Origin: Subsaximicrobium wynnwilliamsii
Lineage (GTDB): Bacteria > Bacteroidota > Bacteroidia > Flavobacteriales > Flavobacteriaceae
DNA length: 64,000 nucleotides
Direction of reading: 5' to 3'
NCBI RefSeq assembly: GCF_007997225.1
Contig: NZ_VORM01000010.1
Location: 62,001 to 126,000 of the forward strand
A program made the position numbers and the translations under genes. This document shows, piece after piece, positions 33,383 to 52,451 of the stretch. The notes below the pieces were generated by a model that saw only the letters and a list, made by a program, of their open reading frames with translations, ran no database searches and had not been told where the DNA came from. Each line of letters starts with the position of its first letter. Position 1 is the first letter of the stretch.

Positions 33383-33494
33383 AGTTTTTAGAGGGTGGTT
33401 TTTAGAGGGTAGTTGTTAGAGGGTAGTTGTTAGTTGGTGGTTTTTAGAGGGTAGAGAAAAGAGAAAAGAGAAAAGAGAAAAGAGAAAAGAGAAA
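33383..33494. repeat. Heptanucleotide array, 16 units
   Basis: It starts 3 bp after the stop codon of the porin-like gene. Sixteen consecutive 7-mers stay in phase: AGTTTTT, AGAGGGT, GGTTTTT, AGAGGGT, AGTTGTT and so on, then six exact AGAGAAA units. Different 7-mers alternate without loss of phase, so the period is kept while the sequence changes. Confidence 0.93.
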
Positions 33495-33635
33495 AGCATA
33501 TAGACCGCTTCGCTTTAGACTATAGACAAGAAAAAGAGTTTAAGTTTATTGCAGCTCTGCTTAGGAAATGTGACTTTATTGACGAGTTAACTATTACAAA
33601 ACCGAAGGCTGGCTCATTGAGCTTGAGCGTAAAAA

Positions 33636-33668
33636 AAAAGGATTCAAATCATAGATTCGAATCCTTTT
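33636..33668. terminator. Bidirectional terminator between convergent genes
   Basis: AAAAGGATTC (33636-33645) pairs with GAATCCTTTT (33659-33668), with an A run before and a T run after, so it can end transcription from both the porin-like gene and lpdA. Confidence 0.8.
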
Positions 33669-33783
33669 TATATTTTTTGTCAATATCTTAAAATCAAGTC
33701 TTGATTCTAAATTCAATTAGCAAGCTGTACTTGGCAGTGCCGAGTAATCGATCTAGTACAAAATTTGAAAACATAATTTTATA

Positions 33784-33818
33784 CTACCCACTACCCACTA
33801 CCTACTGCCCACTACCTA
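33784..33818. repeat. Heptanucleotide array CTACCCA, 5 units
   Basis: Five in-phase 7-mers (CTACCCA, CTACCCA, CTACCTA, CTGCCCA, CTACCTA) end 1 bp before the complement of the lpdA stop codon. Read in the lpdA direction the array begins directly after the stop. Confidence 0.9.
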
Positions 33819-33819
33819 C

Positions 33820-35196
33820 TTAAAGATGTATCACTTCCCCATAAGCATCTGCCACAGCTTCCATTACTGCTTCGCTCATGGTTGGGTGTGGGTGTACGGT
33901 TTTGAGTACTTCATGTCCTGTGGTTTCTAGTTTTCGGCCTAAAACGGCTTCCGCTATCATGTCGGTTACGCCAGCGCCAATCATGTGGCAACCTAACCAT
34001 TCGCCGTATTTAGCGTCGAAGATCACTTTTACAAAACCATCTTTGGCGCCAGAAGCGCTTGCTTTACCAGAGGCAGAAAATGGAAATTTCCCCACTTTGA
34101 TATCCAGGCCTTTTTCCTTGGCTTGTTTTTCGGTTAATCCTACCGATGCAATTTCCGGAGAGCAATAAGTGCAACCTGGGATGTTTCCATAATCTAAGGC
34201 TTCTACATGTTGACCTGCGATTTTCTCCACACATAAAATCCCTTCCGCGGAAGCGACATGCGCCAAAGCCTGACCTGGAGTGATATCGCCAATAGCGTAG
34301 TATCCAGGGATATTGGTTTGGTAGTAATCGTTCACTAGAATTTTATCGCGGTCGGTGGCAATACCAACATCTTCCAAGCCTATGTTTTCTATATTGGATT
34401 TAATACCCACTGCTGAAAGCACCACATCAGCTTCCAAGACTTCTTCGCCTTTTTTGGTTTTAACCGTCGCTTTTACACCATCGCCAGAAGTATCCACTTT
34501 AGTAACCTCGGCGCTGGTCATGATTTTAATACCGCTCTTTTTAAAGCTACGCTCCAATTGTTTGGAAACGTCTTCGTCCTCAACAGGAACAATGTTTGGT
34601 AGGTATTCCACGATGGTTACATCGGTACCCATGGAATTATAGAAATAAGCGAACTCTACGCCAATAGCGCCAGAGCCGACTACAATCATTTTTTTAGGTT
34701 GTTTCTCCAAGGTCATTGCGGCCCTATAGCCAATCACTTTCTTGCCATCTTGCGGCAAAGCTGGCAATTCGCGGGAACGTGTACCTGTGGCGATGATGAT
34801 GTGATCGGCGCTGTATTCTTTTCCGTCAACATCGATTTTTTTACCGGTTTTCAATTTTCCGAAACCATTGATGACGTCAATCTTGTTTTTCTTCATCAAA
34901 AACTGAACGCCTTTACTCATGCCATCGGCAATGCCACGACTGCGTTTCACAACCGCGCCAAAATCGTATCCGGGTTCTTTGACCTTCAATCCGTAATCTT
35001 CGGCATGCTTCAAATACTCAAAAACTTGAGCGCTTTTGAGCAATGCTTTTGTTGGGATACAACCCCAATTTAAACAAACGCCACCAAGGCTTTCCTTTTC
35101 AATAATAGCGGTTTTCAAGCCCAATTGTGAGGCTCTAATTGCTGCAACATAGCCTCCAGGACCACTACCAAGCACTATAACATCGTATTTACTCAT
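33820..35196 (-). CDS. lpdA: Dihydrolipoyl dehydrogenase
   Basis: 458 residues. FAD-binding GSGPGGYVAAIRASQLG, the redox disulfide GGVCLNWGCIPTK, the NAD-binding GSGAIGVEFAYFYNSMG, the FAD segment GYYAIGDI and the C-terminal HPHPTMSE with the catalytic histidine-glutamate pair are all present. It reoxidises lipoamide in pyruvate and 2-oxoglutarate dehydrogenase complexes in the cytosol. It is not next to other subunit genes here, as is common in Flavobacteria. Confidence 0.97.
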   Translation of the reverse strand: MSKYDVIVLGSGPGGYVAAIRASQLGLKTAIIEKESLGGVCLNWGCIPTKALLKSAQVFEYLKHAEDYGLKVKEPGYDFGAVVKRSRGIADGMSKGVQFLMKKNKIDVINGFGKLKTGKKIDVDGKEYSADHIIIATGTRSRELPALPQDGKKVIGYRAAMTLEKQPKKMIVVGSGAIGVEFAYFYNSMGTDVTIVEYLPNIVPVEDEDVSKQLERSFKKSGIKIMTSAEVTKVDTSGDGVKATVKTKKGEEVLEADVVLSAVGIKSNIENIGLEDVGIATDRDKILVNDYYQTNIPGYYAIGDITPGQALAHVASAEGILCVEKIAGQHVEALDYGNIPGCTYCSPEIASVGLTEKQAKEKGLDIKVGKFPFSASGKASASGAKDGFVKVIFDAKYGEWLGCHMIGAGVTDMIAEAVLGRKLETTGHEVLKTVHPHPTMSEAVMEAVADAYGEVIHL

Positions 35197-35589
35197 CTTG
35201 TGAATTTTATCGGTTTTTAAGAAGCTACGAAGTTACAAAACCAAACGCTAAAATTATAGTATGTAAAACATTATTGTCCGTAAAAGAACCAAGGCGGCTT
35301 ACTTCGACTCGCTTTACCCAAGTCGTTGTAAGAATCAATCCCGAAGCTTTCAGGAAGACTTATATCGTAAATTATTGAAAACAGAGTTTTAAAAGCAGTA
35401 TATCTTGCCGAATTTTAAAGTCCGCTTACTTTATTTGCTTTGCCTCTAGGTCATTGATTGCGCATTGCCGTAAGGTTGGTAGGACGCTGCGCACATAGTT
35501 GAGTTGGAGGAAAATTAAATGTGGGTTAATGTCACTTACAAGCTGAGTTCTGATTTTATCAGTTATTTTGCTGCCGCTATGGAAATATC
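35197..35589. other. 393-bp intergenic region upstream of lpdA
   Basis: No gene, RNA or strong hairpin is recognised. It lies between the lpdA start and the end of the DinB-like gene, so it should hold the lpdA promoter, but no perfect TAnnTTTG box is seen on the minus strand close to lpdA. Confidence 0.5.
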
Positions 35590-36144
35590 TCAAACATCGT
35601 CCGTAAAATGTTTGCGTGCTTTATCTTGGCTGAATTTATTTTGATTATACGTCGCTGACTTCCCTTTGGGAATTGACAGCGACTGCCATGCCTCAGCCTT
35701 TATCAGCTTACCCAAAAAGACCATTTGCCCCACATGATAGGCGTAATGTGCCAATTGGCTGTTAATGGCTTCTGTCACGGTATGGCCTTCATTTCTAATA
35801 TAAATAAGTTGCTCAAGATCTTTGGGTTGAAGTGTGTGAAGCGCGCCGAACAGGCAGGTCCAGCCTCGATTCCATTGGTTTATGATTTGCACTTTTGTTT
35901 CTGCGGAAGCTATGAATTCGGCATCGCGTTCGCGCCAGGATTTTTCACCGTCTTCAGTCAAAAAGTGCGTCCATCTTGACAGCATATTACCGCAGAGGTG
36001 TTTTACAATTATGGCTGCAGAATTGCAATCGGCCACCATTTCCAGTTTCAGTTCATCAATGGTCAACACCTCCAAGGTTTTATCTCCAAGCATTTTATAA
36101 TACTCAAATTGTTTGGTTACACTATTAAGGTAGCTGTTGCTCAT
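35590..36144 (-). CDS. DinB-like four-helix protein (DUF1572)
   Basis: 184 residues. The fold markers of DUF1572/DinB-like proteins are present: an N-terminal helix with FEYYKMLGDKTLEVL, IIVKHLCGNMLSRWTHF with the first histidine, and SQLAHYAYHVGQMVFLGKLI with further histidines, together forming the expected metal site. These proteins are putative metal-dependent, thiol-linked enzymes of unknown substrate. The C-terminal tail is charged (DKARKHFTDDV). Confidence 0.8.
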   Translation of the reverse strand: MSNSYLNSVTKQFEYYKMLGDKTLEVLTIDELKLEMVADCNSAAIIVKHLCGNMLSRWTHFLTEDGEKSWRERDAEFIASAETKVQIINQWNRGWTCLFGALHTLQPKDLEQLIYIRNEGHTVTEAINSQLAHYAYHVGQMVFLGKLIKAEAWQSLSIPKGKSATYNQNKFSQDKARKHFTDDV

Positions 36145-36220
36145 GTTTTAAAGATACTATTTACTATAAAAATTTCCGAAGGATTTTCTAAAAAAAAAAT
36201 CCCAAACCCCAAAGCCAGTC

Positions 36221-36262
36221 TTAGGATTTTGGAATTTGGAATTTGGAATTTTAAGATTTGGA
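36221..36262. repeat. Heptanucleotide array TTTGGAA, 6 units
   Basis: TTAGGAT, TTTGGAA, TTTGGAA, TTTGGAA, TTTTAAG, ATTTGGA in unbroken 7-bp phase, ending 10 bp before the complement of the msrB stop codon. Confidence 0.8.
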
Positions 36263-36272
36263 GTTTATCTAA

Positions 36273-36767
36273 TTATTTCGCTGGTACAAACTTTAAAGCA
36301 TCCCCATTGATGCAATGGCGCTTTCCAGTAGTTTCCTTGGGGCCATCGTTGAATACGTGACCCAAATGGCCACCGCAAGTAGCGCAATGCTCTTCATTTC
36401 TGGAGTACCCGAGTTTGCTATCGGTCGAGAACGCAACATTGCCTTCAATCACACGGTCAAAACTTGGCCATCCTGTTCCAGATTCAAATTTATTCTCACT
36501 TTTATAAAGCGGCGTTTCACAGGCAGCACAAACGTAAGTGCCTTCTCGGTGATTATCGTTCAAGTCGCTTGAGAACGGTCTTTCAGTCCCTGCTTCACGC
36601 AACACGTAATATTGATCTGCCGTAAGCTCCTTTTTCCATTCGGCCTCGGTTTTACTTACTTTAAAATCTGTTTTCGTTGCTGTTGCTGTTTTTTGTGCGT
36701 TTGAATTGCAACTCAGTACGAGCGCGAAAATGCAAATTGCCATTAATCGTTTCATAGTTGTTTTCAT
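36273..36767 (-). CDS. msrB: Peptide-methionine (R)-S-oxide reductase MsrB, lipoprotein form
   Basis: 164 residues. The N-terminus is a lipoprotein signal (LVLSCNSNAQ), so the enzyme is exported and membrane-anchored. The MsrB domain has both zinc pairs (CAACETPL and HCATCGGHLGH), SGTGWPSF, and the catalytic RHCINGDAL cysteine near the end. It repairs methionine-R-sulfoxide in envelope proteins. Single gene, followed by a short heptanucleotide array. Confidence 0.95.
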   Translation of the reverse strand: MKTTMKRLMAICIFALVLSCNSNAQKTATATKTDFKVSKTEAEWKKELTADQYYVLREAGTERPFSSDLNDNHREGTYVCAACETPLYKSENKFESGTGWPSFDRVIEGNVAFSTDSKLGYSRNEEHCATCGGHLGHVFNDGPKETTGKRHCINGDALKFVPAK

Positions 36768-36938
36768 ATTTAGTTTTGTGCTAATAAGTCGCTAAGCAAA
36801 GTGTATCCTAACAGCTAAATTACACATTAAGCCAAATTTATGGTTTAGCGTCTTGTTAACTTGTAAGATTTCGTTAAATTACAGGAGAATTCGCACTTGG
36901 GTTCATTTAATCAATCAAAAATTGTTCATTATCGTTTT

Positions 36939-38144
36939 ATGAAAGTACTATTTTACACTAGAGAATTTCCGCCCTATGTTTATGGCGGTGCAGGCGTCCA
37001 CGTTGAGTATTTAGCTGAGGAGTTGGCCAAGCTCATGCCCATGGAGGTCAGGAGTTTTGGAGACCAGGATGCACATGCTGAAAATTTAAAAGTGAAAGGC
37101 TACGATTTTGAAAGTGAAGATTTCAAAACTGCCGATGCTAAGCTTAAAGCGGTCTTGCAAACTTTGAGAACCTGCGTCAATATGAACATAGACCCAGTGG
37201 ATGCCGATGTGGTGCACTGCCACACCTGGTACGCGCATTTTGCAGGCATCGTTTCCAAGCTTTGCTATGGAACGCCGTTGGTTATAACCACACATTCGCT
37301 GGAACCTTTGCGCCCATGGAAACGCGAACAATTGGGAAGAGGCTATGATGCCTCTTCATGGGTGGAGAAAACTGCCATTGAAATGGCAGATGCCGTAATT
37401 GCTGTGTCTAAGGAAACTAAAGAAGATGTACTCAAACATTTTGATGTGGATGAAGCCAAAGTGAAAGTGATCTATAATGGCATCAACTTGGTGGAATATA
37501 ATGTTACAGACAAAACGGATACCCTGGTCGCTCACGGCATTGATCCTACAAAACCTTACGTGCTTTTTGTTGGCCGAATCACAAGACAAAAGGGCATCAT
37601 TCATTTGGTCAATGCCATCAAACATATTCACGGGGAGACCCAAATTGTGTTGTGTGCAGGTGCGCCAGATACACCAGAAATTGCCCAGGAAATGAAAGAC
37701 AGTGTGGAGGCAGTTCAAAAAACACGTGATAATGTGATTTGGATTGATAAGATGTTGCCTAAACCTGAAGTCATACAGCTCTATTCTCATGCCGATGTGT
37801 TTTGCTGTCCGTCTATTTATGAGCCATTTGGTATAATCAATTTAGAAGCCATGGCCTGTGAAACGGCAGTTGTAGCCAGTGCGGTTGGCGGAATCAAGGA
37901 AGTTGTTGTCAATGATGAAACCGGGATTCTGGTTTCTGTAGAGCAACAAACTGAAGCGCCTTTTGAACCCCTGCATCCTGAGAAATTTTCGCAGGATCTT
38001 GCAGACTCCATCAACTATTTAGTGAATAATCCAACAATACGAAAACAAATGGGACTGGCAGGCAGACAACGCGTGGAGTCCACATTTGATTGGGCCGCCA
38101 TTGCCAAGCAGGTTCAAGAACTATATCAAACTTTAAAGCCATAA
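36939..38144 (+). CDS. glgM: GT4 glycogen synthase of the GlgM (maltose-1-phosphate synthase) type
   Basis: 401 residues from the ATG at 36939; the frame reaches back to a TTG at 36897 without merit. The N-terminus FYTREFPPYVYGGAGVHVEY and the C-terminal CPSIYEPFGIINLEAMAC closely follow the actinobacterial GlgA/GlgM family (M. tuberculosis Rv1212c) rather than the GT5 glycogen synthases. In mycobacteria this enzyme joins ADP-glucose and glucose-1-phosphate to maltose-1-phosphate. Because glgC, glgE and maltokinase follow directly, the GlgM role is likely, though chain-elongating activity cannot be excluded. glgC starts 4 bp after its stop. Confidence 0.88.
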   Translation: MKVLFYTREFPPYVYGGAGVHVEYLAEELAKLMPMEVRSFGDQDAHAENLKVKGYDFESEDFKTADAKLKAVLQTLRTCVNMNIDPVDADVVHCHTWYAHFAGIVSKLCYGTPLVITTHSLEPLRPWKREQLGRGYDASSWVEKTAIEMADAVIAVSKETKEDVLKHFDVDEAKVKVIYNGINLVEYNVTDKTDTLVAHGIDPTKPYVLFVGRITRQKGIIHLVNAIKHIHGETQIVLCAGAPDTPEIAQEMKDSVEAVQKTRDNVIWIDKMLPKPEVIQLYSHADVFCCPSIYEPFGIINLEAMACETAVVASAVGGIKEVVVNDETGILVSVEQQTEAPFEPLHPEKFSQDLADSINYLVNNPTIRKQMGLAGRQRVESTFDWAAIAKQVQELYQTLKP

Positions 38145-38148
38145 CATC

Positions 38149-39414
38149 ATGATCAACGACTCAGTACTCGCCATAATATTAGGAGGTGGGCAAGGCTCGC
38201 GCCTTTATCCCTTAACCCAAAAGCGTTCTAAACCTGCAGTTCCCATTGCTGGAAAATACCGCTTGGTAGACATCCCAATTTCCAATTGCATCAACTCAGA
38301 CATCAAGCGCATGTTTGTGTTGACCCAGTTCAATTCGGCGTCCTTGAATAGGCACATTAAAAACACCTATCACTTTAGTTTTTTCAGCTCGGCCTTCGTT
38401 GATGTGCTTGCGGCGGAACAAACCATTGGCAGTGAAGAATGGTTTCAAGGCACTGCCGATGCGGTAAGACAGAGCATGCATCATTTCTTATCACATGATT
38501 TTGAGTATGCACTCATTTTATCTGGCGACCAATTGTACCAGATGGATTTTAATGATATGATTGAGAGGCACAAGAAAAGCGGTGCAGAGATTTCCATTGC
38601 CACTTTGCCAGTAAACGCTAAGGATGCGACGTCTTTTGGTATTCTAAAAACCGATGACAATAGCATGATAAGCTCTTTTATTGAAAAACCAAATACGGAA
38701 GCCTTGCAAGGTTGGGAAAGCGTTGTAAGCGAGGAGATGTTCAAAGATGGTCGCCATTATCTGGCTTCAATGGGGATCTATATTTTTAATAAAGACCTAT
38801 TGGTAAAATTGATGGATGAACCAGATACGGTCGATTTTGGAAAGGAAATCATTCCGCAGTCCATTGATAAATACAAGACCTTCAGCTATCAATACGAAGG
38901 GTATTGGACCGATATTGGAAACATCGATTCCTTTTTTGAAGCCAATTTGGGCTTGACCGATGATATTCCGCAGTTTAATTTATACGATTCCCACAAACGC
39001 ATTTACACGAATGCCAGAATTCTTCCAACCTCAAAAATCACGGGTACTTTGTTATATAAAGCGGTCATTGCCGATGGCTGTATCATTCACGCCGACAAAA
39101 TTGAGCGCTCCGTAATTGGTATTCGGTCGCGAATAGGTAAGGAGTCTGTTGTGATCAATTGTTACATGATGGGTAGTGACGATTATGAATCTCTAAAATT
39201 CATAGATGACAACAATATTGAAATCTACATGGGCATTGGCGAGCGCTGTTTTATCAAGAATGCCATTCTCGATAAAAATTCGCGCATAGGTGATGATGTG
39301 GTCATTGATGGTAGCAAACATCATGAAGATGTGGAGACAGATAGCTATGTGATCAGGGACCAAATTGTGGTGGTTAAAAAGGGGGCGACCATAGCATCTG
39401 GAACAATTATTTAA
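38149..39414 (+). CDS. glgC: Glucose-1-phosphate adenylyltransferase
   Basis: 421 residues. The nucleotide-binding LGGGQGSRLYPLTQKRSKPAVPIAG-type N-terminus, GTADAVRQ, LILSGDQLYQMD, FIEKP and YWTDIGNIDSFFEAN are all present, and a left-handed beta-helix domain closes the protein. It makes ADP-glucose, the donor for the preceding GT4 enzyme. It lies 4 bp after glgM; a gap of about 140 bp separates it from glgE. Confidence 0.96.
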   Translation: MINDSVLAIILGGGQGSRLYPLTQKRSKPAVPIAGKYRLVDIPISNCINSDIKRMFVLTQFNSASLNRHIKNTYHFSFFSSAFVDVLAAEQTIGSEEWFQGTADAVRQSMHHFLSHDFEYALILSGDQLYQMDFNDMIERHKKSGAEISIATLPVNAKDATSFGILKTDDNSMISSFIEKPNTEALQGWESVVSEEMFKDGRHYLASMGIYIFNKDLLVKLMDEPDTVDFGKEIIPQSIDKYKTFSYQYEGYWTDIGNIDSFFEANLGLTDDIPQFNLYDSHKRIYTNARILPTSKITGTLLYKAVIADGCIIHADKIERSVIGIRSRIGKESVVINCYMMGSDDYESLKFIDDNNIEIYMGIGERCFIKNAILDKNSRIGDDVVIDGSKHHEDVETDSYVIRDQIVVVKKGATIASGTII

Positions 39415-39554
39415 TCAATCGCTTTTAGCTATTCTTGATTTAAATACATGAGTGGTTACGCATTTACAAATCTTGAGAATATCCAGCGCCACACTTATTT
39501 ACAACACTTTATTATAGTATTTTTACGAACAAAATCAATCAATTGACCAATAAC

Positions 39555-43134: not shown

Positions 43135-45045
43135 ATGTCAAAAGTTATTGCACACAGTCGTTTTACAGAATTTGATATCAATTTATTCAAAGCTGGAAAA
43201 CACTATCGCTTATATGAAAAATTCGGAGCACACATTAGCACCGTTGATGGTGTGGACGGGGTTTATTTTGCAGTTTGGGCACCCAGTGCAAAAACGGTTT
43301 CTGTGATTGGCGATTTCAATTTTTGGGTTGAAGGCACGCATCAATTGAACGTGCGTTGGGATTCCAGTGGTATTTGGGAAGGTTTCATTCCTGGAGCAGG
43401 TAAGGGCAGTACTTATAAATATAAGATACACAGCAATAACAACGATGTCAAGACCGAAAAGGCCGATCCTTATGCCCGGCGCTCAGAGCACAACCCTAAA
43501 ACCGCTTCTATAGTTTGGGACGACCCTTACCAGTGGAAGGATAGCAAGTGGATGAAAAAGCGTAAGAAGAACAATGCGTTAGATGCGCCATTTTCGGTAT
43601 ATGAAGTGCATTTGGGGTCTTGGAAACGCAAGCTGGAAGGCAATTCCGTTTTGACGTATAGCGAACTGGCGGAAGACCTGGTAAGCTATGTCAAAGACAT
43701 GAATTTCACACACGTGGAGTTGATGCCGGTCATGGAGTTTCCTTATGATCCAAGTTGGGGCTACCAAATCACAGGCTATTTTGCGCCAACCTCACGTTTT
43801 GGGTATCCAGAGGATTTTAAATTGCTGGTTGATAAATTGCACCAAAATGATATTGGGATCATTCTGGATTGGGTGCCTTCACATTTTCCAGAAGATGCCC
43901 ACGGACTCGGTTTTTTCGACGGCACCGCACTTTACGAGCATCCAGACCGCCGCAGGGGCTACCATACCGATTGGAAGAGTCTCATTTTTAACTACGGAAG
44001 GAACGAGGTCAAATCCTTCCTCATCAGCAATGCCATTTTTTGGTTGGATCAATTTCATGCCGATGGATTGCGCGTAGATGCCGTAGCCTCCATGTTATTT
44101 TTGGATTATTCAAGAGAAGATGGCGAATGGGAACCTAATATATTTGGGGGTCGAGAAAATTTGGAAGCCATGGCATTTCTTAGGGAAATGAACGACGCCG
44201 TTTACACTGCCTTCCCAGATGTACAAACCATTGCTGAAGAATCCACGGCATTTCCCATGGTTTCAAAACCCACTTCTATTGGCGGCTTGGGCTTTGGCAT
44301 GAAATGGATGATGGGTTGGATGCACGACACACTTCAATATTTTGCCAAGCCACCGGTGTATAGAAAGTTCCATCAAAATGACTTGACCTTCTCAATGACC
44401 TATGCCTTTACCGAGAATTTCATGCTGCCACTGTCCCATGACGAAGTGGTTTACGGCAAGAAATCCATTTTAGGCAGGATGCCGGGAGACGAGTGGCAGC
44501 GATTTGCCAACTTGCGTTTGTTGTATAGTTATATGTTCACACATCCAGGCACCAATTTGTTGTTTCAGGGTGCGGAATTTGCCCAGAGCAAGGAGTGGAA
44601 TTTTGAGCAGAGTCTTGATTGGCACTTATTAGACTATGCACCGCACCAAGGCATTCAGGCATTGATCAAGGATTTGAACGGCTTGTACAAATCCCAACCA
44701 GCGCTACATGAAAAACAATTTTCTGCGGAAGGCTTTGAATGGATCGATTATAATGATCATGAAAATTCAGTATTGGTTTACATTAGAAAATCAGATGACG
44801 AGAAAGACGATTTGATTATCGCCTGCAACATGACCCCTGTACCAAAAGAAAGCTATCGCATTGGCTTGCCGAAAAAAGGGAACTTGAAGGAACGCTTTAA
44901 TAGCGATCAAAAAAAATACTTCGGAAGTGGCGCTTATAAAAACAGCAAACTCAGCTCAGAAGCAGTTGCACATCATTTTAGAGACCATTCTGTAGAAATC
45001 GCGATCCCTCCATTGGGGATGGTGGTTTTTGGGTATGGGTCTTGA
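43135..45045 (+). CDS. glgB: 1,4-alpha-glucan branching enzyme
   Basis: 636 residues. A CBM48 N-terminal domain (GVYFAVWAPSAKTVSVIGDFNFW) is followed by the GH13 barrel with VELMPVMEFPYDPSWGYQ, the nucleophile region GLRVDAVASMLFLDYSRE, the acid/base AEESTAFP and the LPLSHDEVVYGKKS segment. It forms alpha-1,6 branches in the glucan made by GlgE. It is the last gene of the operon; a 21-bp repeat array starts 19 bp after its stop. Confidence 0.96.
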   Translation: MSKVIAHSRFTEFDINLFKAGKHYRLYEKFGAHISTVDGVDGVYFAVWAPSAKTVSVIGDFNFWVEGTHQLNVRWDSSGIWEGFIPGAGKGSTYKYKIHSNNNDVKTEKADPYARRSEHNPKTASIVWDDPYQWKDSKWMKKRKKNNALDAPFSVYEVHLGSWKRKLEGNSVLTYSELAEDLVSYVKDMNFTHVELMPVMEFPYDPSWGYQITGYFAPTSRFGYPEDFKLLVDKLHQNDIGIILDWVPSHFPEDAHGLGFFDGTALYEHPDRRRGYHTDWKSLIFNYGRNEVKSFLISNAIFWLDQFHADGLRVDAVASMLFLDYSREDGEWEPNIFGGRENLEAMAFLREMNDAVYTAFPDVQTIAEESTAFPMVSKPTSIGGLGFGMKWMMGWMHDTLQYFAKPPVYRKFHQNDLTFSMTYAFTENFMLPLSHDEVVYGKKSILGRMPGDEWQRFANLRLLYSYMFTHPGTNLLFQGAEFAQSKEWNFEQSLDWHLLDYAPHQGIQALIKDLNGLYKSQPALHEKQFSAEGFEWIDYNDHENSVLVYIRKSDDEKDDLIIACNMTPVPKESYRIGLPKKGNLKERFNSDQKKYFGSGAYKNSKLSSEAVAHHFRDHSVEIAIPPLGMVVFGYGS

Positions 45046-45064
45046 TTTACGAGAAGTGTTGTTT

Positions 45065-45365
45065 GATGGTGGTGCTGGGTTGTTTCACGGAAATGCTGGG
45101 TTGTTTCGCGGAGATGCGCTGAGGTTTCACGGAGATGCGCAGAGGGTTCACGGAGATGCTGGGTTGTTCCACGGAGATGCGCTGAGGGTTCACGGAGATG
45201 CTGGGTTGTTTCACGGAGATGCGCAGAGTGTTCATTGAGATGCTGGGTTGTTTCACGGAGATGCGCTGAGGTTTCACAGAGATGCGCAGAGGTTTCGCAG
45301 AGATGCTGGGTTGTTCCACGGAGATGCGCTGAGGTTTCACAGAGATACGCAGAGGGTTCATAAAG
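45065..45365. repeat. 21-bp minisatellite built from heptamers (43 heptamers)
   Basis: 301 bp = 43 x 7 with no phase slip. The basic unit is 21 bp, three heptamers, alternating between ATGCTGG-GTTGTTT-CACGGAG and ATGCGCT-GAGGTTT-CACGGAG types. Because 21 is a multiple of 3, all six frames tend to stay open (plus-strand text reads HGDAGLF/HGDALRV), but no start or function supports a protein. It begins 19 bp after glgB. Confidence 0.95.
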
Positions 45366-45396
45366 ACCTGTCAGGTTTTTAAAACCTGACAGGTCT
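45364..45396. terminator. Bidirectional terminator between glgB and acpH
   Basis: AGACCTGTCAGGTTTT pairs perfectly with AAAACCTGACAGGTCT around one T, a 33-bp near-perfect palindrome with a central T run on both strands. It closes the convergent glgB and acpH units and overlaps the last base of the array. Confidence 0.75.
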
Positions 45397-45422: not shown

Positions 45423-46022
45423 TTACTCAAACTTACGCTCGATCTCTAAAAGCTTCTGCTGGCTAAAGTCACGAAGTTCCTCGAAAAAGCTGGTAAATTC
45501 ACGCTCAAATTCCGTGTAAAACTCCTTGAGTTCATTGGTCGCATGATTCATTCCAGAGATGTTTTTGGTGCGGCGGTTCATGCCATTCAGTACTTTTTGA
45601 ATGCCTTCGATTTTGGCATAACTCAGCAACCAATTATCGGCAATCATGTAAGGCATCATTTTTTGGATGCGTGCCGGCAACAGCTCATAATGATCTTCCA
45701 GACTGTCATAAAAACGTTCAATGTAAAGCTCCAAAGGCACATTTGAATACCGATGCCAATTCTTCGCCAGAAAATGATCGTAAAGAATATCCACAATGAC
45801 GCCGCTGTAATGGCTGTAATTTTTATGCAGCTTTTTAGTGCTCAATCGCACTGTGGGATGTGCATCGGTAAAGGTGTCGATTTGCCGATGCAACAAGATG
45901 CCTTTCTGAAGATTGATGGGGTACTTGGTGTAGTGTTTTCCGCGAATGCCATCGGCAATGAAATTACCAATGGTAATGGCTTCATGCTCCCCAGAAAGAT
46001 AGATGTGGGCTAAAAAATTCAT
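45423..46022 (-). CDS. acpH: Acyl carrier protein phosphodiesterase family protein
   Basis: 199 residues. The AcpH signature is clear: MNFLAHIYLSG at the start, IGNFIADGIRG, GILLHRQIDTFTDAHP and VDILYDHFLAKNW, supplying the histidine and aspartate metal ligands of the HD-like fold. It removes the phosphopantetheine group from acyl carrier protein; the family is broad, so the exact substrate is inferred. It is divergent from glmM. Confidence 0.85.
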   Translation of the reverse strand: MNFLAHIYLSGEHEAITIGNFIADGIRGKHYTKYPINLQKGILLHRQIDTFTDAHPTVRLSTKKLHKNYSHYSGVIVDILYDHFLAKNWHRYSNVPLELYIERFYDSLEDHYELLPARIQKMMPYMIADNWLLSYAKIEGIQKVLNGMNRRTKNISGMNHATNELKEFYTEFEREFTSFFEELRDFSQQKLLEIERKFE

Positions 46023-46069
46023 TGGTGTAATTTACGGATTTCGCATTTAGGATTCCAACTTTCTAATCG

Positions 46070-46077
46070 TATATTTG
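46070..46077 (+). promoter_or_regulatory. -7 box of glmM
   Basis: TATATTTG is a perfect TAnnTTTG box ending 23 bp before the glmM ATG. Confidence 0.5.
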
Positions 46078-46100
46078 TCTACTCATCATAAAAACAACAC

Positions 46101-47489
46101 ATGACACTCATTAAATCAATTTCAGGAATTAGAGGTACCATTGGAGGTAAAGTTGGTGATAATCTCACACCTATTGACGCTGTAAAATTTGCAGCCGCTT
46201 ATGGCACTTGGATCAAACAGCAGCGCAGCAAAGAAAATTATCGCGTGGTGGTTGGCCGAGACGCTAGAATTTCTGGGGCAATGATGCAAAATTTGGTCAT
46301 GAACACTTTAGTGGGTTTAGGAATCGATGTGATCGATTTAGGATTGTCAACAACGCCAACGGTAGAAATTGCAGTGCCGATGGAGCAGTCCGATGGCGGC
46401 ATTATTTTAACGGCCAGCCACAATCCCAAACAATGGAACGCCCTAAAACTCTTGGATGCCAAAGGTGAATTTTTGAATGCTGAAGAAGGCGCTAAAATCT
46501 TGAACATTGCTGAAAGCGATGCCATGACATTCGCAGAAGTGGACAATCTGGGCGAGATTCACGTTAACGATGCCTATATTGATATTCATATTGATGAGGT
46601 CTTGGACCTAGAATTGGTCAATGTGGAGGCTATCAAAAAAGCCGATTTCAAAGTGGTGGTCGATGGCGTCAATTCTACGGGAGGTATTGCAATTCCCTTA
46701 TTGTTGGAGCGTTTGGGTGTTGAAGCTGTGAAATTGTACTGTGAACCTAACGGCCATTTTCCGCACAATCCAGAACCTTTGAAAGAGCATCTTACCGATC
46801 TTTCCAAAGAAGTGGTAAAAGCACATGCCGATTTCGGGATTGCCGTGGATCCAGATGTCGATCGTTTGGCATTTATAGATGAAACTGGCGAGATGTTTGG
46901 CGAAGAATATACCTTGGTGGCCTGTGCCGATTATGTACTGAGCAAAACCCCGGGGAACACCGTGAGCAACATGAGCTCTACCCGAGCTTTGAGTGATATT
47001 ACCAAAAAGCATGGCGGTACTTATAAAGCCAGCGCCGTGGGTGAGGTCAACGTGGTCAACATGATGAAACAAAATAACGCGGTTATTGGAGGCGAAGGCA
47101 ATGGTGGCATTATTTATCCGGAATTACACTACGGAAGGGATGCCTTGGTAGGTGTGGCCTTATTTTTAAGTCTGTTGGCCGAAAAGAAAATGAGTGTGAG
47201 CGCACTTCGGGCCAGTTATCCGGATTACTACATGAGCAAAAAGAAAATAGAACTCACGGCAGATTTAGATGTTGACGCCTTGTTAACAGCGATGGAAGCA
47301 AAATATGCCGAAGAAAAACTGACAACGATTGATGGCGTGAAAATAGATTTTGAAAATTCTTGGGTTCACCTTAGAAAGAGCAATACAGAACCCATCATCA
47401 GAATCTATACCGAGGCAGCGTCACAAGCCGAAGCGCATGCGCTGGCAGATCGTGTTATTTCTGAGATCAAAGAGATTGCGGGGGTTTAA
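46101..47489 (+). CDS. glmM: Phosphoglucosamine mutase
   Basis: 462 residues of the alpha-D-phosphohexomutase family. The phosphoserine loop is LTASHNPKQWNALK, the magnesium loop DPDVDRLAFIDETGE, the sugar-binding loop GGEGNGGIIYPELHYGRD, and the phosphate loop RKSNTEPIIRIY. The GEGNGG-type sugar loop and wide conservation favour GlmM (glucosamine-6-P to glucosamine-1-P for UDP-GlcNAc) over phosphoglucomutase, although the glycogen genes nearby make the latter worth keeping in mind. It runs into a compound tandem repeat. Confidence 0.85.
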   Translation: MTLIKSISGIRGTIGGKVGDNLTPIDAVKFAAAYGTWIKQQRSKENYRVVVGRDARISGAMMQNLVMNTLVGLGIDVIDLGLSTTPTVEIAVPMEQSDGGIILTASHNPKQWNALKLLDAKGEFLNAEEGAKILNIAESDAMTFAEVDNLGEIHVNDAYIDIHIDEVLDLELVNVEAIKKADFKVVVDGVNSTGGIAIPLLLERLGVEAVKLYCEPNGHFPHNPEPLKEHLTDLSKEVVKAHADFGIAVDPDVDRLAFIDETGEMFGEEYTLVACADYVLSKTPGNTVSNMSSTRALSDITKKHGGTYKASAVGEVNVVNMMKQNNAVIGGEGNGGIIYPELHYGRDALVGVALFLSLLAEKKMSVSALRASYPDYYMSKKKIELTADLDVDALLTAMEAKYAEEKLTTIDGVKIDFENSWVHLRKSNTEPIIRIYTEAASQAEAHALADRVISEIKEIAGV

Positions 47490-47498
47490 CGCGAGGCG

Positions 47499-47955
47499 GA
47501 ATATTGAATATCGAATATTGAATTTTGAACGCTGAATAACGAAGTTTTGATTGTGACTTCGATTTCAAAATTCAACTACAAATGAATACGGAATATTGAA
47601 TTTTGAATACTGAACCCGAACACTGAAGTTTCGATCGTGACTTTGATTTCAAGTGCAACAGCAACTGAATACGGAATATTGAATATCGAATGTTGAACAC
47701 TGAATACTGAAGTTTTGATTGTGACTTCGATTTTAAAGTGCAGCTGGAGACTGAAGACTGAAGACTAGAGTCGGAATATTGAATACTGAATTTTGAACAC
47801 TGAATACTGAAGTTTCGATCGTGACTTCGATTTCAAAGTGCAACAGCAACTGAATACTGAACCCGAACACTGAAGTTTCGATCGTGACTTCGATTTCAAG
47901 TGCAACAGCAACTGCGGACTGAAGACTGCGGACTGAAGACTGAAGACTGAATCAA
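47499..47955. repeat. Compound tandem array: heptamers inside 85-100-bp higher-order units
   Basis: It begins 9 bp after the glmM stop with in-phase heptamers GAATATT, GAATATC, GAATATT, GAATTTT, GAACGCT, GAATAAC, GAAGTTT. About five longer units each contain a heptamer block, then GAAGTTTCGATCGTGACTTC or a variant (imperfect dyad), then a segment like AAAGTGCAACAGCAACTG. It ends with GACTGAA heptamers. No coding frame is credible. Confidence 0.9.
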
Positions 47956-48028
47956 GCCATCAACAACGAGTTTTTGCACAAGTCTTTAGTAAACCAAAAC
48001 GCAAACGAGAGTCAGCTGCGGTCTTGGT

Positions 48029-48931
48029 TCACGCTTTAACCTCATGGTAGTCTGAAGCAGACTTGTCTTTATGTTTCCAGCGTTTGTGCGTCCATAGATA
48101 ATACTGTGGTGCGCTTTTGATCTGTGCTTCCGTCAAGCGGAAAAACATATCGGTGATTTCATAATTCTCAAAGTCCTTCGCATTTTCGGTAATGGTCTCA
48201 AAAGAGGTTTCGTAATAGCCACGTTTCAGCCGTTTCACACTAAAAAACACCACTGCAAGATCCAAGCGTTTTGCCAACATTTCAGCACCCGTATGCATTG
48301 GGACCTTGTAGCCCATGAACTCTCCCCAATGTAGTGCCTTATTGGGTTTTGCAGATTGATCAGACACAAAACCGCAGATAAAGGGCGTACCCTTGACCTT
48401 AGCCCGCATTAAGATGGGAATGGTCTCTTTGGTAGTGATCAAATGGCTGTTGTATTTGGCGCGAATGCGTTTGATAAGCTTATCAAAATGCGAATTGACC
48501 AAACGCTTGTAAACCGCATAGCCTTTATTGTCGATATAATGCTGAAGAATGAAAATCCACTCCCAGCTTCCGTAGTGGGCACACATCAAAGCCACGCTGC
48601 GATTCCGTTGTTCGAGATCTTGTAGCAGTTCCACATTGCTAAAACGAAAACGCTTTTTCATTTCCGCTTTAGAAATGGTTAAGGATTTTATGGCCTCGAC
48701 CATCATATCGCAGAAGTGATGGTAGAATTGCTTGGTAATGGTTTTGATTTCTGCGGCGCTTTTTTCAGGAAATACAAGCTGGAGATTTTCCTTCACGGTT
48801 TTGCTGCGGTATCCAAAAATACGGTAAATGAAGAGGTATAGAAAGTCTGAAAATGCATATAATAACCTAAACGGAAGCATGGAAACCAACCATAAAAGGG
48901 GATACACGATTATGTAGACAACAAATTGCAT
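48029..48931 (-). CDS. LpxL/LpxM-type lipid A acyltransferase
   Basis: 300 residues with an N-terminal membrane anchor (about 5-35). The acyltransferase motif H(x4)E is AHYGSWEW at about 118-125; GFVSDQSAKPNKA and MPTHTGAEMLA-like text (VPMHTGAEMLAKR) follow, as in HtrB/LpxL proteins. It adds a secondary acyl chain to lipid A at the inner membrane. It is divergent from the rhomboid gene with overlapping promoter zones. Confidence 0.9.
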   Translation of the reverse strand: MQFVVYIIVYPLLWLVSMLPFRLLYAFSDFLYLFIYRIFGYRSKTVKENLQLVFPEKSAAEIKTITKQFYHHFCDMMVEAIKSLTISKAEMKKRFRFSNVELLQDLEQRNRSVALMCAHYGSWEWIFILQHYIDNKGYAVYKRLVNSHFDKLIKRIRAKYNSHLITTKETIPILMRAKVKGTPFICGFVSDQSAKPNKALHWGEFMGYKVPMHTGAEMLAKRLDLAVVFFSVKRLKRGYYETSFETITENAKDFENYEITDMFFRLTEAQIKSAPQYYLWTHKRWKHKDKSASDYHEVKA

Positions 48932-48947
48932 TGCGGGTAATAAGTAT

Positions 48948-48969
48948 TAGATTTGTAGCCGCAAATATA
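48948..48969. promoter_or_regulatory. Crossed divergent promoters of lpxL-like and rhomboid genes
   Basis: TAGATTTG (48948-48955, plus strand, 37 bp before the rhomboid ATG) and TATATTTG (48969-48962, minus strand, 31 bp before the acyltransferase ATG) are both perfect -7 boxes. They point past each other within 22 bp, so the two promoters overlap and polymerase binding should be mutually exclusive. Confidence 0.5.
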
Positions 48970-48991
48970 TGTATAATAAAAGGTTTTATTT

Positions 48992-49642
48992 ATGGGCAAT
49001 CTCAGTATCGTTTTAATCGTAATCATTGCAGCCAACGCACTAATTTCTTATAAGGGTTTCAACGATTATGGTTTTTTTGAGAAATACAAATTCAATGTGG
49101 GTCGCATTAGGGCCGGCGAGCAATTTAGGATGTTCAGTTCTGGGTTTTTGCATGCCGATACCACGCATTTGCTGTTTAACATGCTGACCTTATTCTTTTT
49201 TGCCGATCGCGTGATCTTTTTTGTGGGCAGTGTCAATTTCTTGGTTATTTATGTGGCCAGTTTGCTTTTGGGCAGCGTGTTGTCTTTTTATTTTCATAAA
49301 GAGGAATCACAGTATTCTGCAGTTGGTGCCAGTGGTGCCGTAACCGGCATCTTGTATGCTGCTATTCTGCTTGATCCTAGAATGAGCCTTTACATGTTTT
49401 TTATCCCCATTCCAATTCCTGCTTATGTCTTTGGGATTGGGTATTTGTTGTACTCAATTTATGGCATGAAAAATAGGGTGGGCAATATTGGTCACGATGC
49501 GCATTTTGGAGGTGCGATTGGTGGCTTCGTCATTACACTCATTATGGTGCCATCGCTTTTCCAAACCGATTTATTGATGGTGGGATTACTGTCTGTACCA
49601 ATTATTATTTTGTTTGTGATGCATAAAACGGGCAAATTATAA
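48992..49642 (+). CDS. Rhomboid family intramembrane serine protease
   Basis: 216 residues, six hydrophobic segments. The catalytic serine is in VGASGAVTG (GxSG), the partner histidine in HDAHFGGAIGG, and the conserved HLLFNML of helix 2 supplies the oxyanion-side residues. The usual N-terminal cytosolic domain is missing, giving a minimal rhomboid. Substrate unknown. Confidence 0.92.
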   Translation: MGNLSIVLIVIIAANALISYKGFNDYGFFEKYKFNVGRIRAGEQFRMFSSGFLHADTTHLLFNMLTLFFFADRVIFFVGSVNFLVIYVASLLLGSVLSFYFHKEESQYSAVGASGAVTGILYAAILLDPRMSLYMFFIPIPIPAYVFGIGYLLYSIYGMKNRVGNIGHDAHFGGAIGGFVITLIMVPSLFQTDLLMVGLLSVPIIILFVMHKTGKL

Positions 49643-49712
49643 GCATCCTTTAGGAATTGAATTGGCTTGAATGCTTGTTGTTTTCTTGAAAGATCAGTTT
49701 TTGGTAGAGGGC

Positions 49713-49803
49713 TTAGGACTTGCGATTTAGGATTTAAGACTTAGGACTTAAGACGTAGGACGTAGGACGTAGGACGTACGACTTAGTACGTAAGACTTAA
49801 GAC
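49713..49803. repeat. Heptanucleotide array TTAGGAC/GTAGGAC, 13 units
   Basis: Thirteen 7-mers in exact phase (TTAGGAC, TTGCGAT, TTAGGAT, TTAAGAC, TTAGGAC, TTAAGAC, three GTAGGAC, GTACGAC, TTAGTAC, GTAAGAC, TTAAGAC). It lies 70 bp after the rhomboid stop. Confidence 0.92.
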
Positions 49804-50406
49804 CTACACTAAAATGCCTAGGATTGACAATTATTGAGACAGTCTTTGATCAGCTCAAGCGGCACTAACACAAATTGTGTATCCACTTTTAATTCTAATA
49901 ATTATATGTTTCGTCAGACCCTCTGGATTTTTATTGGTCTCAAATAGAGTTGAAACTATGCACTTTAAGGCATTCCGCTTTAGCTTCTAAAAATGTTTTG
50001 CCACGAATTTCACGAACCGGCCTGTCCGCTAGGCAAGTTTTCACGAAACCGTTTCTTATCTAAAAGCGTTCACAATGAGATACGATTCATTTCACGAATT
50101 CAACAGCCTTTCAGTCTGTTTCAAAAAACCTATAGACTTGAATTCCATAGTGGTTGAGTTGCCCCACCAGCCGCGATTGAAGCAAAAATTGGCTACTACA
50201 AACATGATTTTAAATAAGCCATCGTTAAGGGTCGGAGGAAAAGGATTTTTGGCAATACGTCTAACGTTATCAACTAGTTGTGATTGATTGCCTTGGCAAT
50301 GAAAAAACGAATTTATAAAAGGCAAAAGGTATGACAAAAGTCATCTTCTTGTAGACTAATATAAGTCATATTTGTGGCTTATGTAATTTACAAAAAAACT
50401 TAAAAG
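49804..50406. other. 603-bp gene-poor stretch before the unknown 603-residue protein gene
   Basis: It contains short open frames of 70-81 codons without start context or family likeness. A fragment reading CGGCCTGTCCGCTAGGCAAG (50020-50040) resembles widely scattered Bacteroidota palindromic repeats. No RNA gene is recognised. Confidence 0.45.
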
Positions 50407-52218
50407 TTGACGTCATCTCAATCACTACATAGCTTTCATATCCCGGTAATGGGATTGGCTTATACCATCGACAGTCCAATTCGTGTGGCGCACTATGGCA
50501 TTTCGTCGGTTATCTCTATCATAGACGATGAGCTTATAGAAAAAATGAATGCTTTTTACAGCAAAAAGTTTAACCTCCCTCATCAAGAAATAGCTAAAAA
50601 AGCCCAAGATCATCGTGCCGAGCGCATTACTTCGTATTTGAATCTTGTGGACAGCATTGTTAAAGATAAATTCTCGAGATTCAAAATTGAATTGTCTGAA
50701 AGCAAGTCAGCCTTAGAGCAATTCATGGGCACTTTACCCAATAGCTCCGATTTCAAAGCAGGCCTTTCCAATTTATTGGACGAAGGCACTGCGCTGAAAG
50801 CACAGCTTAAATCCTATTTGGAAACGCATTTAAAAGCGGGTGATATTGATGTCAACATCATGACCAAAGTGGATAAGGATAATTTCATCAAAGGAGAACA
50901 ATTGCCTGTGGAATTTAATGATGCACATGCTTCGCTTCGCGGATTTGCCAATAGTAATTTAAATTCTTCCGTGGTACTTTCCGCAGGAATGAATCCCAGA
51001 CTGTACAGTTATTTCGAACAGTTTAAGGACTTCTTTCCAGATGCAGCAGGGCAGTTGAAAAAGCGAATCATTTTGAAGGTCAGCGATTACCGTTCCGCAA
51101 CCATTCAGGGAAAATTCTTGGCAAAAAAAGGACTTTGGGTTTCAGAATATAGAATTGAATCGGGTTTAAACTGTGGCGGGCACGCCTTTGCTACGGAAGG
51201 CTTTTTATTGGGTCCCATTTTAGAGGAGTTCAAAACTAAAAAAGCAGCATTAATTCAAGACACGCACGAGGTTTATGTGAAAGGCTTAAGTTTGAAGGAA
51301 ATGGCCGTTCCCGAGCAAGCACTCGATTTGAAAATCACGGTTCAAGGTGGTGTTGGTACAGCAGCAGAGCATGCGTTCTTGCTCAACAACTACCAAGTGG
51401 ATTCCGTTGGTTGGGGAACCCCGTTTTTATTGGTGCCAGAAGCGACCTCTGTAGATCGGAAAACTAGGGAATTACTCATGAACGCCAAAGAAAACGATTT
51501 GTATCTAAGTGGTATTTCGCCTTTGGGAGTGCCCTTTAATGCTATAAAAGGGACAACAAACGAGTTCTTTAAACAAAAGCGCATTGACGACGCTAAGCCA
51601 GGGAGCTCTTGCCCTAAGAAATTTTTAGCCTTGAGTAAGGAATTTGGGCCAGAAGGGATTTGTACCGCTTCAAAAAAATACCAAGATGTCAAATTGGAGG
51701 CCTTAGAAGCCAAAAAATCGGAAATATCCTCAGACCTCTATAACAATGCCAAAGCTAAAATAACCGAAAAAGCCTGCCTTTGCGTAGGCTTGGCAAACGC
51801 TTCCTACTTAGAAAACGATATAAAAATAAAAGGGCAGGAACAAGGCGTTGTCATTTGTCCGGGACCCAATTTGGCGTATTTTGATAAGGAAGTGTCGCTG
51901 TCTCAAATGATGCAACACATCAATGGGAATGCTTCGGTACTGGCCAGTGTGAATAGGCCAAATATGTTTGTGAAGGAATTGAAAATGTACGTGGATTATT
52001 TGCGAAATGACATCCGAAGCATTTCAGAAGACCTTTCAGCCAAACAAATTAAAAAATGGAAGGCTTTCAAAAACAATCTGTTTGATGGCATCGCCTATTA
52101 CCAAGCGCTGTTTGTGACGTCTTTGGCTGCTGAAGAAAAAGCGATTCAAAATGAGCTTCAGTTTTATAAAGATGAATTGATTGCGGTGCGTATCCCAGAA
52201 TTGGAACCGGTGCTTTAG
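50407..52218 (+). CDS. Large conserved-looking protein of unknown function
   Basis: 603 residues if started at the TTG at 50407, directly behind an in-frame TAA at 50401; the first ATG (50449) would cut off FHIPVMGLAYTIDSPI inside a segment that reads as structured, so TTG is preferred. No signal peptide or membrane helix. Notable segments are LNCGGHAFATEG, VQGGVGTAAEHAFLLNNY and WGTPFLLVPEATSVD, which recall phosphate-binding loops of flavin TIM barrels, and cysteines in CPKKF, GICTAS and ACLCVGLAN. I do not recognise the family with confidence; a flavin or iron-sulfur oxidoreductase is only a guess. Its 3' end is followed by a TTATGCC-TAAA-GGCATAA hairpin (52256-52273). Confidence 0.75.
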   Translation: MTSSQSLHSFHIPVMGLAYTIDSPIRVAHYGISSVISIIDDELIEKMNAFYSKKFNLPHQEIAKKAQDHRAERITSYLNLVDSIVKDKFSRFKIELSESKSALEQFMGTLPNSSDFKAGLSNLLDEGTALKAQLKSYLETHLKAGDIDVNIMTKVDKDNFIKGEQLPVEFNDAHASLRGFANSNLNSSVVLSAGMNPRLYSYFEQFKDFFPDAAGQLKKRIILKVSDYRSATIQGKFLAKKGLWVSEYRIESGLNCGGHAFATEGFLLGPILEEFKTKKAALIQDTHEVYVKGLSLKEMAVPEQALDLKITVQGGVGTAAEHAFLLNNYQVDSVGWGTPFLLVPEATSVDRKTRELLMNAKENDLYLSGISPLGVPFNAIKGTTNEFFKQKRIDDAKPGSSCPKKFLALSKEFGPEGICTASKKYQDVKLEALEAKKSEISSDLYNNAKAKITEKACLCVGLANASYLENDIKIKGQEQGVVICPGPNLAYFDKEVSLSQMMQHINGNASVLASVNRPNMFVKELKMYVDYLRNDIRSISEDLSAKQIKKWKAFKNNLFDGIAYYQALFVTSLAAEEKAIQNELQFYKDELIAVRIPELEPVL

Positions 52219-52374
52219 TTCTATGAGCAAGGGCGTCTGTTTTTTTAGCGATATTTTATGCCTAAAGGCATAATTCCGTAGCAATTTTCGATCAAACTTT
52301 GATTCCTTCGGAATATGCAATTCAGCATAATTCTCTAGGGGTCTAATTATTGTGAAATTTTGTTAGCCCTATTC

Positions 52375-52451
52375 TTGAACCTTGAACCCTGAACTTTGAA
52401 CTTTGAATCTTGAACCTTGAACCTTAAACCTTGAACTTTAAACCTTGAACT
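52375..52451. repeat. Heptanucleotide array TTGAACC, 11 units
   Basis: Eleven in-phase 7-mers (TTGAACC, TTGAACC, CTGAACT, TTGAACT, TTGAATC, TTGAACC, TTGAACC, TTAAACC, TTGAACT, TTAAACC, TTGAACT). The last base coincides with the complement of the stop codon of the TlpA-like gene. Confidence 0.94.

What the first reader, a model, noticed from the sequence alone, without database searches (positions are those of the whole stretch)
33383..52451. A family of stop-codon-abutting tandem repeats kept in strict 7-bp phase
Six arrays (33383-33494, 33784-33818, 36221-36262, 45065-45365, 49713-49803, 52375-52451) plus blocks within 47499-47955 have a heptanucleotide period that holds through up to 43 units although the heptamers differ between arrays and change inside arrays (AGAGGGT, AGTTGTT, AGAGAAA in one). 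Most begin 0-20 bp beyond a stop codon in the direction of that gene. Cyanobacteria have heptanucleotide STRR sequences (established), but there one heptamer recurs; here period and position are conserved and sequence is not. This suggests a length-measuring copying mechanism or a selected role at mRNA 3' ends.
Basis: partly seen in the sequence, partly recalled or inferred. Interest (0 to 1): 0.85.

Follow-up and report, generated by a model that had tools for sequence, protein, structure and literature searches.

The report
Seven-base repeat arrays after stop codons
One marine flavobacterium carries many short DNA arrays repeating every six or seven bases, often right after gene stop codons; such repeats are known in bacteria, but their sharp unit length and placement are unexplained.

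Summary
In 564 kb of this genome, self-repeats at lag 7 (49) and lag 6 (36) dominate; lag 9 gives 6, lag 3 gives 3, and lags 4, 5, 8, 10, 11 give 0. In 800 kb of 18 congener genomes lag 7 gives 1 and lag 6 gives 5: a lineage-specific burst. Stop-codon abutment holds: 27 of 41 intergenic array clusters lie within 20 bp of a gene 3' end against 12.6 expected (22 of 34 against 9.6 without the window), with no 5' bias. Heptads from 27 other genomes repeat the bias; a dispersed element in this genome does not. The largest array (45065-45365) is a 21-bp repeat without a 7-bp signal. Period-6 arrays are nearly as common. Units are not arbitrary: 23 pairs of separate arrays share a heptamer, 1.1 expected. 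Best explanation: minisatellites growing by whole-unit slippage in the untranslated stretch after stop codons and reseeding other loci. Reverse-transcriptase copying is unlikely (no RVT_1 match). Heptamer repeats are known elsewhere; this is a strong, multi-sequence variant.

The parts
8407..8525 (+).
   Evidence: lag 6 identity 0.85, lag 12 0.89
32858..33379 (+). Gene, outer-membrane beta-barrel domain (PF13568); its stop is 3 bp before the array
33383..33496 (+). Heptad array: 14-bp AGTTTTT-AGAGGGT part, then 6 pure AGAGAAA units
33783..33820 (-). Heptad array (sense GTAGGTA/GTGGGTA), abutting the stop of the minus-strand lipoamide-dehydrogenase-like gene
33820..35196 (-). Gene, pyridine nucleotide-disulphide oxidoreductase (lpd-like; the gene name is recalled)
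36221..36251 (-). Heptad array (sense AAATTCC), 21 bp after the MsrB-like stop
36273..36767 (-). Gene, SelR/MsrB domain
43135..45045 (+). Gene, branching-enzyme-like (CBM_48 + alpha-amylase; the name is inferred); stop 12-20 bp before the 21-bp array
45058..45366 (+). 21-bp repeat array (TTTCACGGAGATGCGCAGAGG type), not a heptad array
   Evidence: lag 7 0.21, lag 21 0.71; related units in two other arrays of this genome, on C30 and C49
46101..47489 (+). Gene, phosphoglucomutase/phosphomannomutase
47499..47951 (+). Composite region: heptad blocks (GAATATT, CTGAATA, GACTGAA) separated by repeated non-heptad segments, with 63- and 100-bp superunits; starts 9 bp after a stop
48992..49642 (+). Gene, rhomboid domain
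49708..49807 (+). Heptad array (TTAGGAC/TTAAGAC/GTAGGAC), 65 bp after the stop
52373..52451 (-). Heptad array (sense GTTCAAG), abutting the stop of a minus-strand AhpC/TSA-family gene
52451..53608 (-). Gene, DUF4369 + AhpC/TSA

Best explanation
These are short intergenic minisatellites with a 7-bp (and 6-bp) unit. Shown: they are tandem, phase-true, mostly intergenic, far denser in this species than in the congeners sampled, placed preferentially at gene 3' ends, and partly built from heptamers reused at separate loci. Inferred: arrays grow by slipped-strand mispairing or unequal recombination, which shifts by whole units and so keeps phase while point mutations change the unit and local re-expansion makes variants such as (AGAGAAA)6. 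Inferred: short pieces of arrays seed other loci by microhomology copying, so that unit length is inherited genome-wide. Inferred: they start or survive best right after stop codons because that stretch is transcribed but no longer covered by ribosomes (prone to R-loops and fork slippage) and because an insertion not divisible by three does no harm there. Why 6-7 rather than 5 or 8 is not explained; that such loops are too large for mismatch repair is recalled knowledge and would predict a broader peak.
For: Lag spectrum 7 and 6 with multiples. Near-absence in congeners. Position test in the own genome (27 of 41 against 12.6, 0 of 2000 permutations; without the window: 22 of 34 against 9.6, 0 of 2000; non-overlapping 0-20 bp, 18 against 8.4) and in 27 arrays from as many other genomes (12 within 10 bp against 5.1, 1 of 2000; 13 within 20 bp against 7.7, 10 of 2000). 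Not a general insertion tolerance: 15 intergenic copies of a ~100-bp dispersed element show no 3' bias (2 within 20 bp against 1.4). In the four array-bearing window genes whose orthologues were found, most orthologues stop within one residue of the same place, so those arrays probably did not create the stops. Same heptamers at separate loci, 23 pairs against 1.1, without shared flanks beyond repeats and palindromes. Sense-strand G>C 24:7 (p = 0.003) against 121:93 in array-free ends, as R-loops would favour (recalled). Of regions of at least 60 bp, convergent carry arrays in 12 of 45, tandem in 23 of 181, divergent in 2 of 47.
Against: No strain comparison shows unit-number change. No transcript or R-loop data. 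The sharpness at 6-7 (0 at 5 and 8) is not predicted by generic slippage. MutS1 is intact, so no repair defect was found that would explain the burst; other repair genes were not searched. The expectation that the stop codon itself seeds the units failed: register 0 ranked first in 6 of 23 period-7 arrays (3.3 expected), 4 of those 6 overlapping the stop. Exceptions: two Winogradskyella branching-enzyme orthologues run 34-35 residues longer, and single orthologues differ by 3-6 residues.
Confidence: 0.5

Rival explanations
1. Functional 3'-end elements: arrays act in the RNA, as stop signals in all three frames, as spacers, or by loading or excluding Rho, and are kept by selection.
For: Stop bias; stop triplets 9.7 per 100 nt on the sense strand against 4.6 on the antisense strand, 23:6 arrays of 32; arrays sit where congeners have hairpin terminators (median start 20-23 nt after the stop), and this genome has fewer such terminators (73 of 271 ends) than congeners (132 of 292, summed).
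Against: Composition explains part of the stop-triplet excess; period-6 units give stops in one frame only; no array was seen by eye in the 130 nt printed after the same genes in the unnamed congeners; array-bearing and array-free ends in this genome differ little in terminators; the low terminator count is confounded with GC (18 of 57 in family loci of the same GC).
Confidence: 0.2
2. Tolerance only: tandem repeats arise everywhere and survive after stops because nothing is constrained there.
For: Arrays are rare in coding DNA (lag 7: 4 coding, 45 intergenic); 18 period-8 arrays from other genomes show no significant 3' bias (5 against 3.7).
Against: The bias holds inside intergenic regions, also in tandem ones with at least 100 bp of free room (10 of 18 within 20 bp of the 3' side, 3 of the 5' side), and a dispersed element in the same genome lacks it.
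Confidence: 0.18
3. A mobile cassette or transposon footprint (target duplication of 6-7 bp) spreads the arrays.
For: Same heptamers at separate loci.
Against: The 48 array flanks compared share only residual repeats and two palindromes; arrays reach many units.
Confidence: 0.07
4. A templated, telomerase-like length-measuring polymerase makes the arrays.
For: Sharp 6-7 spectrum; reused units.
Against: No RVT_1 match in this genome, while 9 of the 22 congeners have one; the 8 of these 9 that were sampled lack the burst. Reverse transcriptases outside RVT_1 were not sought.
Confidence: 0.04

Closest known systems
GGGAATC / GGGGA(C/T)T heptamer repeats of Xanthomonas and Nostoc (PMC4692102; passages read)
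   Same: 7-bp unit, intergenic, under-represented between divergent genes, close to stop codons on the sense strand (within 50 bp), prominent repeats not at the same genes in two related species, mostly transcribed in Xac
   Different: A G-quadruplex-forming unit there; here many units, only 4 of 46 holding GGG or CCC (counted from the list), plus period-6 arrays
TAACTGA direct repeats of Beggiatoaceae, cyanobacteria and five Bacteroidetes (PMC4679880; passages, section 12)
   Same: Heptamer arrays between genes; the Gramella forsetii and Aequorivita sublithincola regions and two in Elizabethkingia also hold other heptamer repeats, and for three sets close relatives have shorter regions without obvious repeats
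   Different: Particularly just before start codons there, one unit; here after stops, many units. TCAGTTA (its reverse complement) was seen by eye only as a variant unit in one array, L128 3234-3517
Cyanobacterial heptanucleotide repeats (Calothrix, three units; as cited in PMC4692102)
   Same: Heptanucleotide tandem repeats in several sequences
   Different: Position near stops not described in what I read
Short (7 bp or less) tandem repeats used for typing Xanthomonas citri (PMC4045669; passages)
   Same: Short tandem repeats, described as having very high mutation rates
   Different: Strain variation is measured there; not testable here

Membership tests
Intergenic heptameric simple sequence repeats (general kind) | Tandem repeat with 7-bp period above chance | tested here: met
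   (not met for 45058-45366)
Intergenic heptameric simple sequence repeats (general kind) | Between genes rather than in coding DNA | tested here: met
   lag 7, 45 intergenic and 4 coding of 49
Intergenic heptameric simple sequence repeats (general kind) | Unit number varies between strains | not testable with these tools
   one genome per species held
Xanthomonas/Nostoc G-rich heptamers | Close to the stop codon, G-rich strand as sense | tested here: met
   as a bias, 24 of 31 arrays G>C on the sense strand
Xanthomonas/Nostoc G-rich heptamers | G-quadruplex-forming unit with GGG tract | tested here: not met
   4 of 46 units listed hold GGG or CCC (counted by eye)
TAACTGA repeats | Unit TAACTGA | tested here: not met
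   0 of 46 commonest units; variant units in L128 only (by eye)
TAACTGA repeats | Just upstream of start codons | tested here: not met
   no 5' bias: 9 of 41 against 7.4 expected within 20 bp
Reverse-transcriptase-templated repeats | Reverse transcriptase in the genome | tested here: not met
   0 RVT_1 matches in G000 at E <= 0.001

The most novel reading that the evidence does not exclude
A DNA-level process with a built-in 6-7 nt step acts where translation ends: fork slippage or template switching over the naked nascent RNA just behind stop codons writes arrays of many sequences. Once one species switches it on, arrays appear at many of its gene ends, while a few other lineages (such as G045 and G229) run a like process with an 8-nt step.
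Probability: 0.15. Interest if true: 0.85.

Novelty: new variant of a known kind. Interest (0 to 1): 0.52.

Why it matters
The excess of heptamer repeats in bacteria is noted without an explanation in the passages read here. This species offers a sharp case to test one: a burst not seen in the 18 congeners sampled, two adjacent unit lengths, arrays anchored at stop codons, an intact MutS1 and no RVT_1 match. The same bias in other Flavobacteriaceae suggests that translation end, more than unit sequence, may set where such repeats form. If slippage is the cause, these 3' regions should vary strongly between strains.

Tried and rejected
Stop codon as seed of the unit: register test, 6 of 23 period-7 arrays against 3.3 expected; rejected as a general rule. 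Mobile cassette: flanks share only residual repeats and palindromes. Reverse transcriptase: no RVT_1 match. Mismatch-repair loss: MutS1 present with an open frame. RNA families: no Rfam match at gathering scores and no tRNA in the window. Arrays replacing terminators: suggestive but confounded by GC and threshold. The tool's 'control' (pattern read backwards) was not used, because AGT at 7-bp spacing is itself a heptad pattern; it is why G338, rich in AGT heptads, is not called an 8-bp genome. The period-8 count includes 4-bp TGAT runs, so it is an upper bound.

Limits of the counts. The base label leans to 6 and 7 for arrays seen only at multiples (45058 at lags 42 and 21, others at 12, 21, 30, 42 or 54); these stay in the 41 clusters, so the exact-lag counts are the evidence for period. 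Of 66 intergenic arrays with base 6 or 7, 65 lie between called genes and merge per region to 41 clusters. L100, L104 and L105 were left out because a repeat had selected them, and the small contigs and L107, L108 were left out too. At the loosest threshold (12) lags 5, 8, 9 and 10 give 3, 2, 12 and 1 against 56 at lag 7. One search uses 27 of 30 period-7 loci (30 genomes, none of them G000) and 18 of 20 period-8 loci (from 17 genomes). Genes were called by my own dicodon script, not by an annotation. Orthologues for the array genes at 8407, 47499, 49708 and 52373 were not found or not sought.
Full report
Source. The window is G000:C10:62001-126000, in a 4.90-Mb genome of 132 contigs, 99.98% complete. 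A branching-enzyme-like protein (43135-45045) is 86% identical (best segment) to Winogradskyella litoriviva. One congener handle (G006) has a contig of the same length as one of Psychroserpens mesophilus, so the genome probably belongs to that GTDB genus (inference). The 22 congeners have 3.1-4.2 Mb.

Check in the window. TRF and direct reading confirm 7-bp arrays at 33383, 33783, 36221, within 47499-47951, at 49708 and at 52373. The largest claimed array, 45065-45365, has lag-7 identity 0.21 against 0.27 for shuffles, but 0.71-0.78 at 21, 42, 63 and 84 bp; it is a 21-bp repeat. A 6-bp array at 8407-8525 was missed. Six of the seven named places lie within 21 bp of a stop.

Genome scale. I scanned 564 kb (window plus 25 stretches not chosen for repeats) for ungapped self-matches at each lag. 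Lag 7: 49 segments (45 intergenic, 4 coding); lag 6: 36 (24 and 12); lag 9: 6; lag 3: 3; lag 2: 1; lags 4, 5, 8, 10 and 11: 0; one shuffle of each sequence: 0 at all lags from 2 to 30. Without the window: 40 at lag 7 and 35 at lag 6 in 500 kb. Other thresholds keep the pattern; the loosest lets in a few at lags 5, 8 and 10 and 12 at lag 9. In 800 kb of 18 congener genomes the same scan gives 1 at lag 7 and 5 at lag 6; in 80 Flavobacteriaceae loci (1.65 Mb) 6 and 2, with 4 each at lags 8 and 9, a broad thin spread. Intergenic DNA is 17.1% here and 9.9% in the congener sample, but detected arrays cover only 5.6% of it, so they do not account for the larger gaps.

Position. Of 66 intergenic arrays with a 6- or 7-bp base label, 65 lie between called genes and merge to 41 clusters. 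Within 20 bp of a gene 3' end: 27, against 12.6 (s.d. 2.1) for uniform placement in the same regions, reached in 0 of 2000 permutations; 5' ends: 9 against 7.4. Without the window: 22 of 34 against 9.6, 0 of 2000; 5' 9 against 7.2. Counting only non-overlapping starts 0-20 bp after the stop: 18 against 8.4. Of regions of at least 60 bp, convergent carry arrays in 12 of 45, tandem in 23 of 181 (4 more lie in shorter ones), divergent in 2 of 47. As a control, 15 intergenic copies of a ~100-bp dispersed element in the same sample show 2 against 1.4. For four array-bearing window genes with orthologues at hand, most orthologues stop within one residue of the same place; exceptions are two Winogradskyella branching enzymes (34-35 residues longer) and single cases of 3-6 residues.

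Family scale. TGA repeated six times at 7-bp spacing occurs in 184 of 397 family genomes, at 8-bp spacing in 68 of 397, 4-bp runs included; the window's genome has 107 and 0 overlapping hits. A few genomes favour 8, such as G045 (53 against 3) and G229 (24 against 7). Seven array-rich genomes (400 kb) give lag 7 = 10, lag 11 = 2, lags 4, 8 and 10 = 1 each, lag 6 = 0. Of 30 fetched loci from 30 other genomes, 27 could be tested: 12 within 10 bp of a 3' end against 5.1 (1 of 2000), 13 within 20 bp against 7.7 (10 of 2000). Eighteen period-8 loci: 5 within 10 bp against 3.7 (435 of 2000), a small sample. Both sets were chosen by a TGA pattern.

Sequence of units. Among the 46 intergenic arrays labelled period 7, 23 pairs in different stretches or more than 5 kb apart share the same canonical unit against 1.1 (maximum 5 in 200) for letter-shuffled units, for example AATCGTC at four places and AAATTCC at three. 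Their flanks share only residual repeats and palindromes. For 32 arrays with one neighbouring 3' end within 30 bp, 24 have G>C and 7 C>G on the sense strand (p = 0.003), and stop triplets are 9.7 against 4.6 per 100 nt on the other strand (23:6 arrays); 237 array-free ends show 121:93 and 6.7 against 6.4. Part of the stop excess follows from composition.

Mechanism. Shown: tandem phase, species-level burst, 3' bias, reused units. Inferred: growth by whole-unit slippage, reseeding by microhomology, and origin or survival in the untranslated part of transcripts. Not explained: the sharp 6-7 length. MutS1 is intact. RVT_1 has no match here, while 9 of 22 congeners have one and the 8 of these that were sampled lack the burst. 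The idea that arrays replace terminators is confounded.

Literature. Papers were seen only as listings, passages or one section: heptamers in Xanthomonas and Nostoc near stops, TAACTGA repeats including Flavobacteriaceae with other heptamers nearby, a genome-wide survey, short typing repeats. The 2007 survey by Mrazek and colleagues is not held. Searches listed no paper that I recognised, from titles and abstract starts, as describing multi-sequence 6-7-bp arrays at stops in this family; subscription papers are mostly not held.

Noticed in passing
window 45364-45396: Palindrome with two perfect 16-bp arms (AGACCTGTCAGGTTTT and its complement around one base) at the end of the 21-bp array between two convergent genes, terminator-like; other palindromes lie beside arrays elsewhere.
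   Followed up: partly
window 11891-11993 and 13928-14003; L103, L124, L114, L120 and others: A ~100-bp dispersed, hairpin-forming element, 16 copies in 564 kb, 15 of them between genes.
   Followed up: partly
window 49948-50159; L094 from 11760; L106 from 18209: A ~210-230-bp intergenic repeat at 82-88% identity in several places.
   Followed up: no
window 57060-58695; L122 10773-12124; L111 1573-2179: Long intergenic region sharing a ~240-bp segment at 80% identity with L122 and a shorter one with L111.
   Followed up: no
G000:C30:57631-57967, G000:C49:45228-45952: The 21-bp unit's core (CACRGAGATGCGC) recurs in arrays with other superperiods, about 178 bp at C49; 4 of 298 other family genomes have the 20-base form with one mismatch allowed.
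   Followed up: partly
G000:C20:20514 and C55:41926: Five MutS-family matches in this genome, against 2-4 in congeners.
   Followed up: no
L016, downstream of the lpd orthologue: Winogradskyella undariae has a GCTAGAA array (eight units) directly after the stop of the orthologue of the gene next to window 33783-33820.
   Followed up: partly
G045, G229: Genomes with more 8-bp than 7-bp TGA arrays.
   Followed up: partly
L116 834-1624: Composite intergenic region alternating period-7 and period-6 blocks.
   Followed up: no
whole genome G000: Larger genome, higher GC (about 0.40 against 0.31-0.37), wider gaps and fewer hairpin terminators than the congeners sampled.
   Followed up: partly
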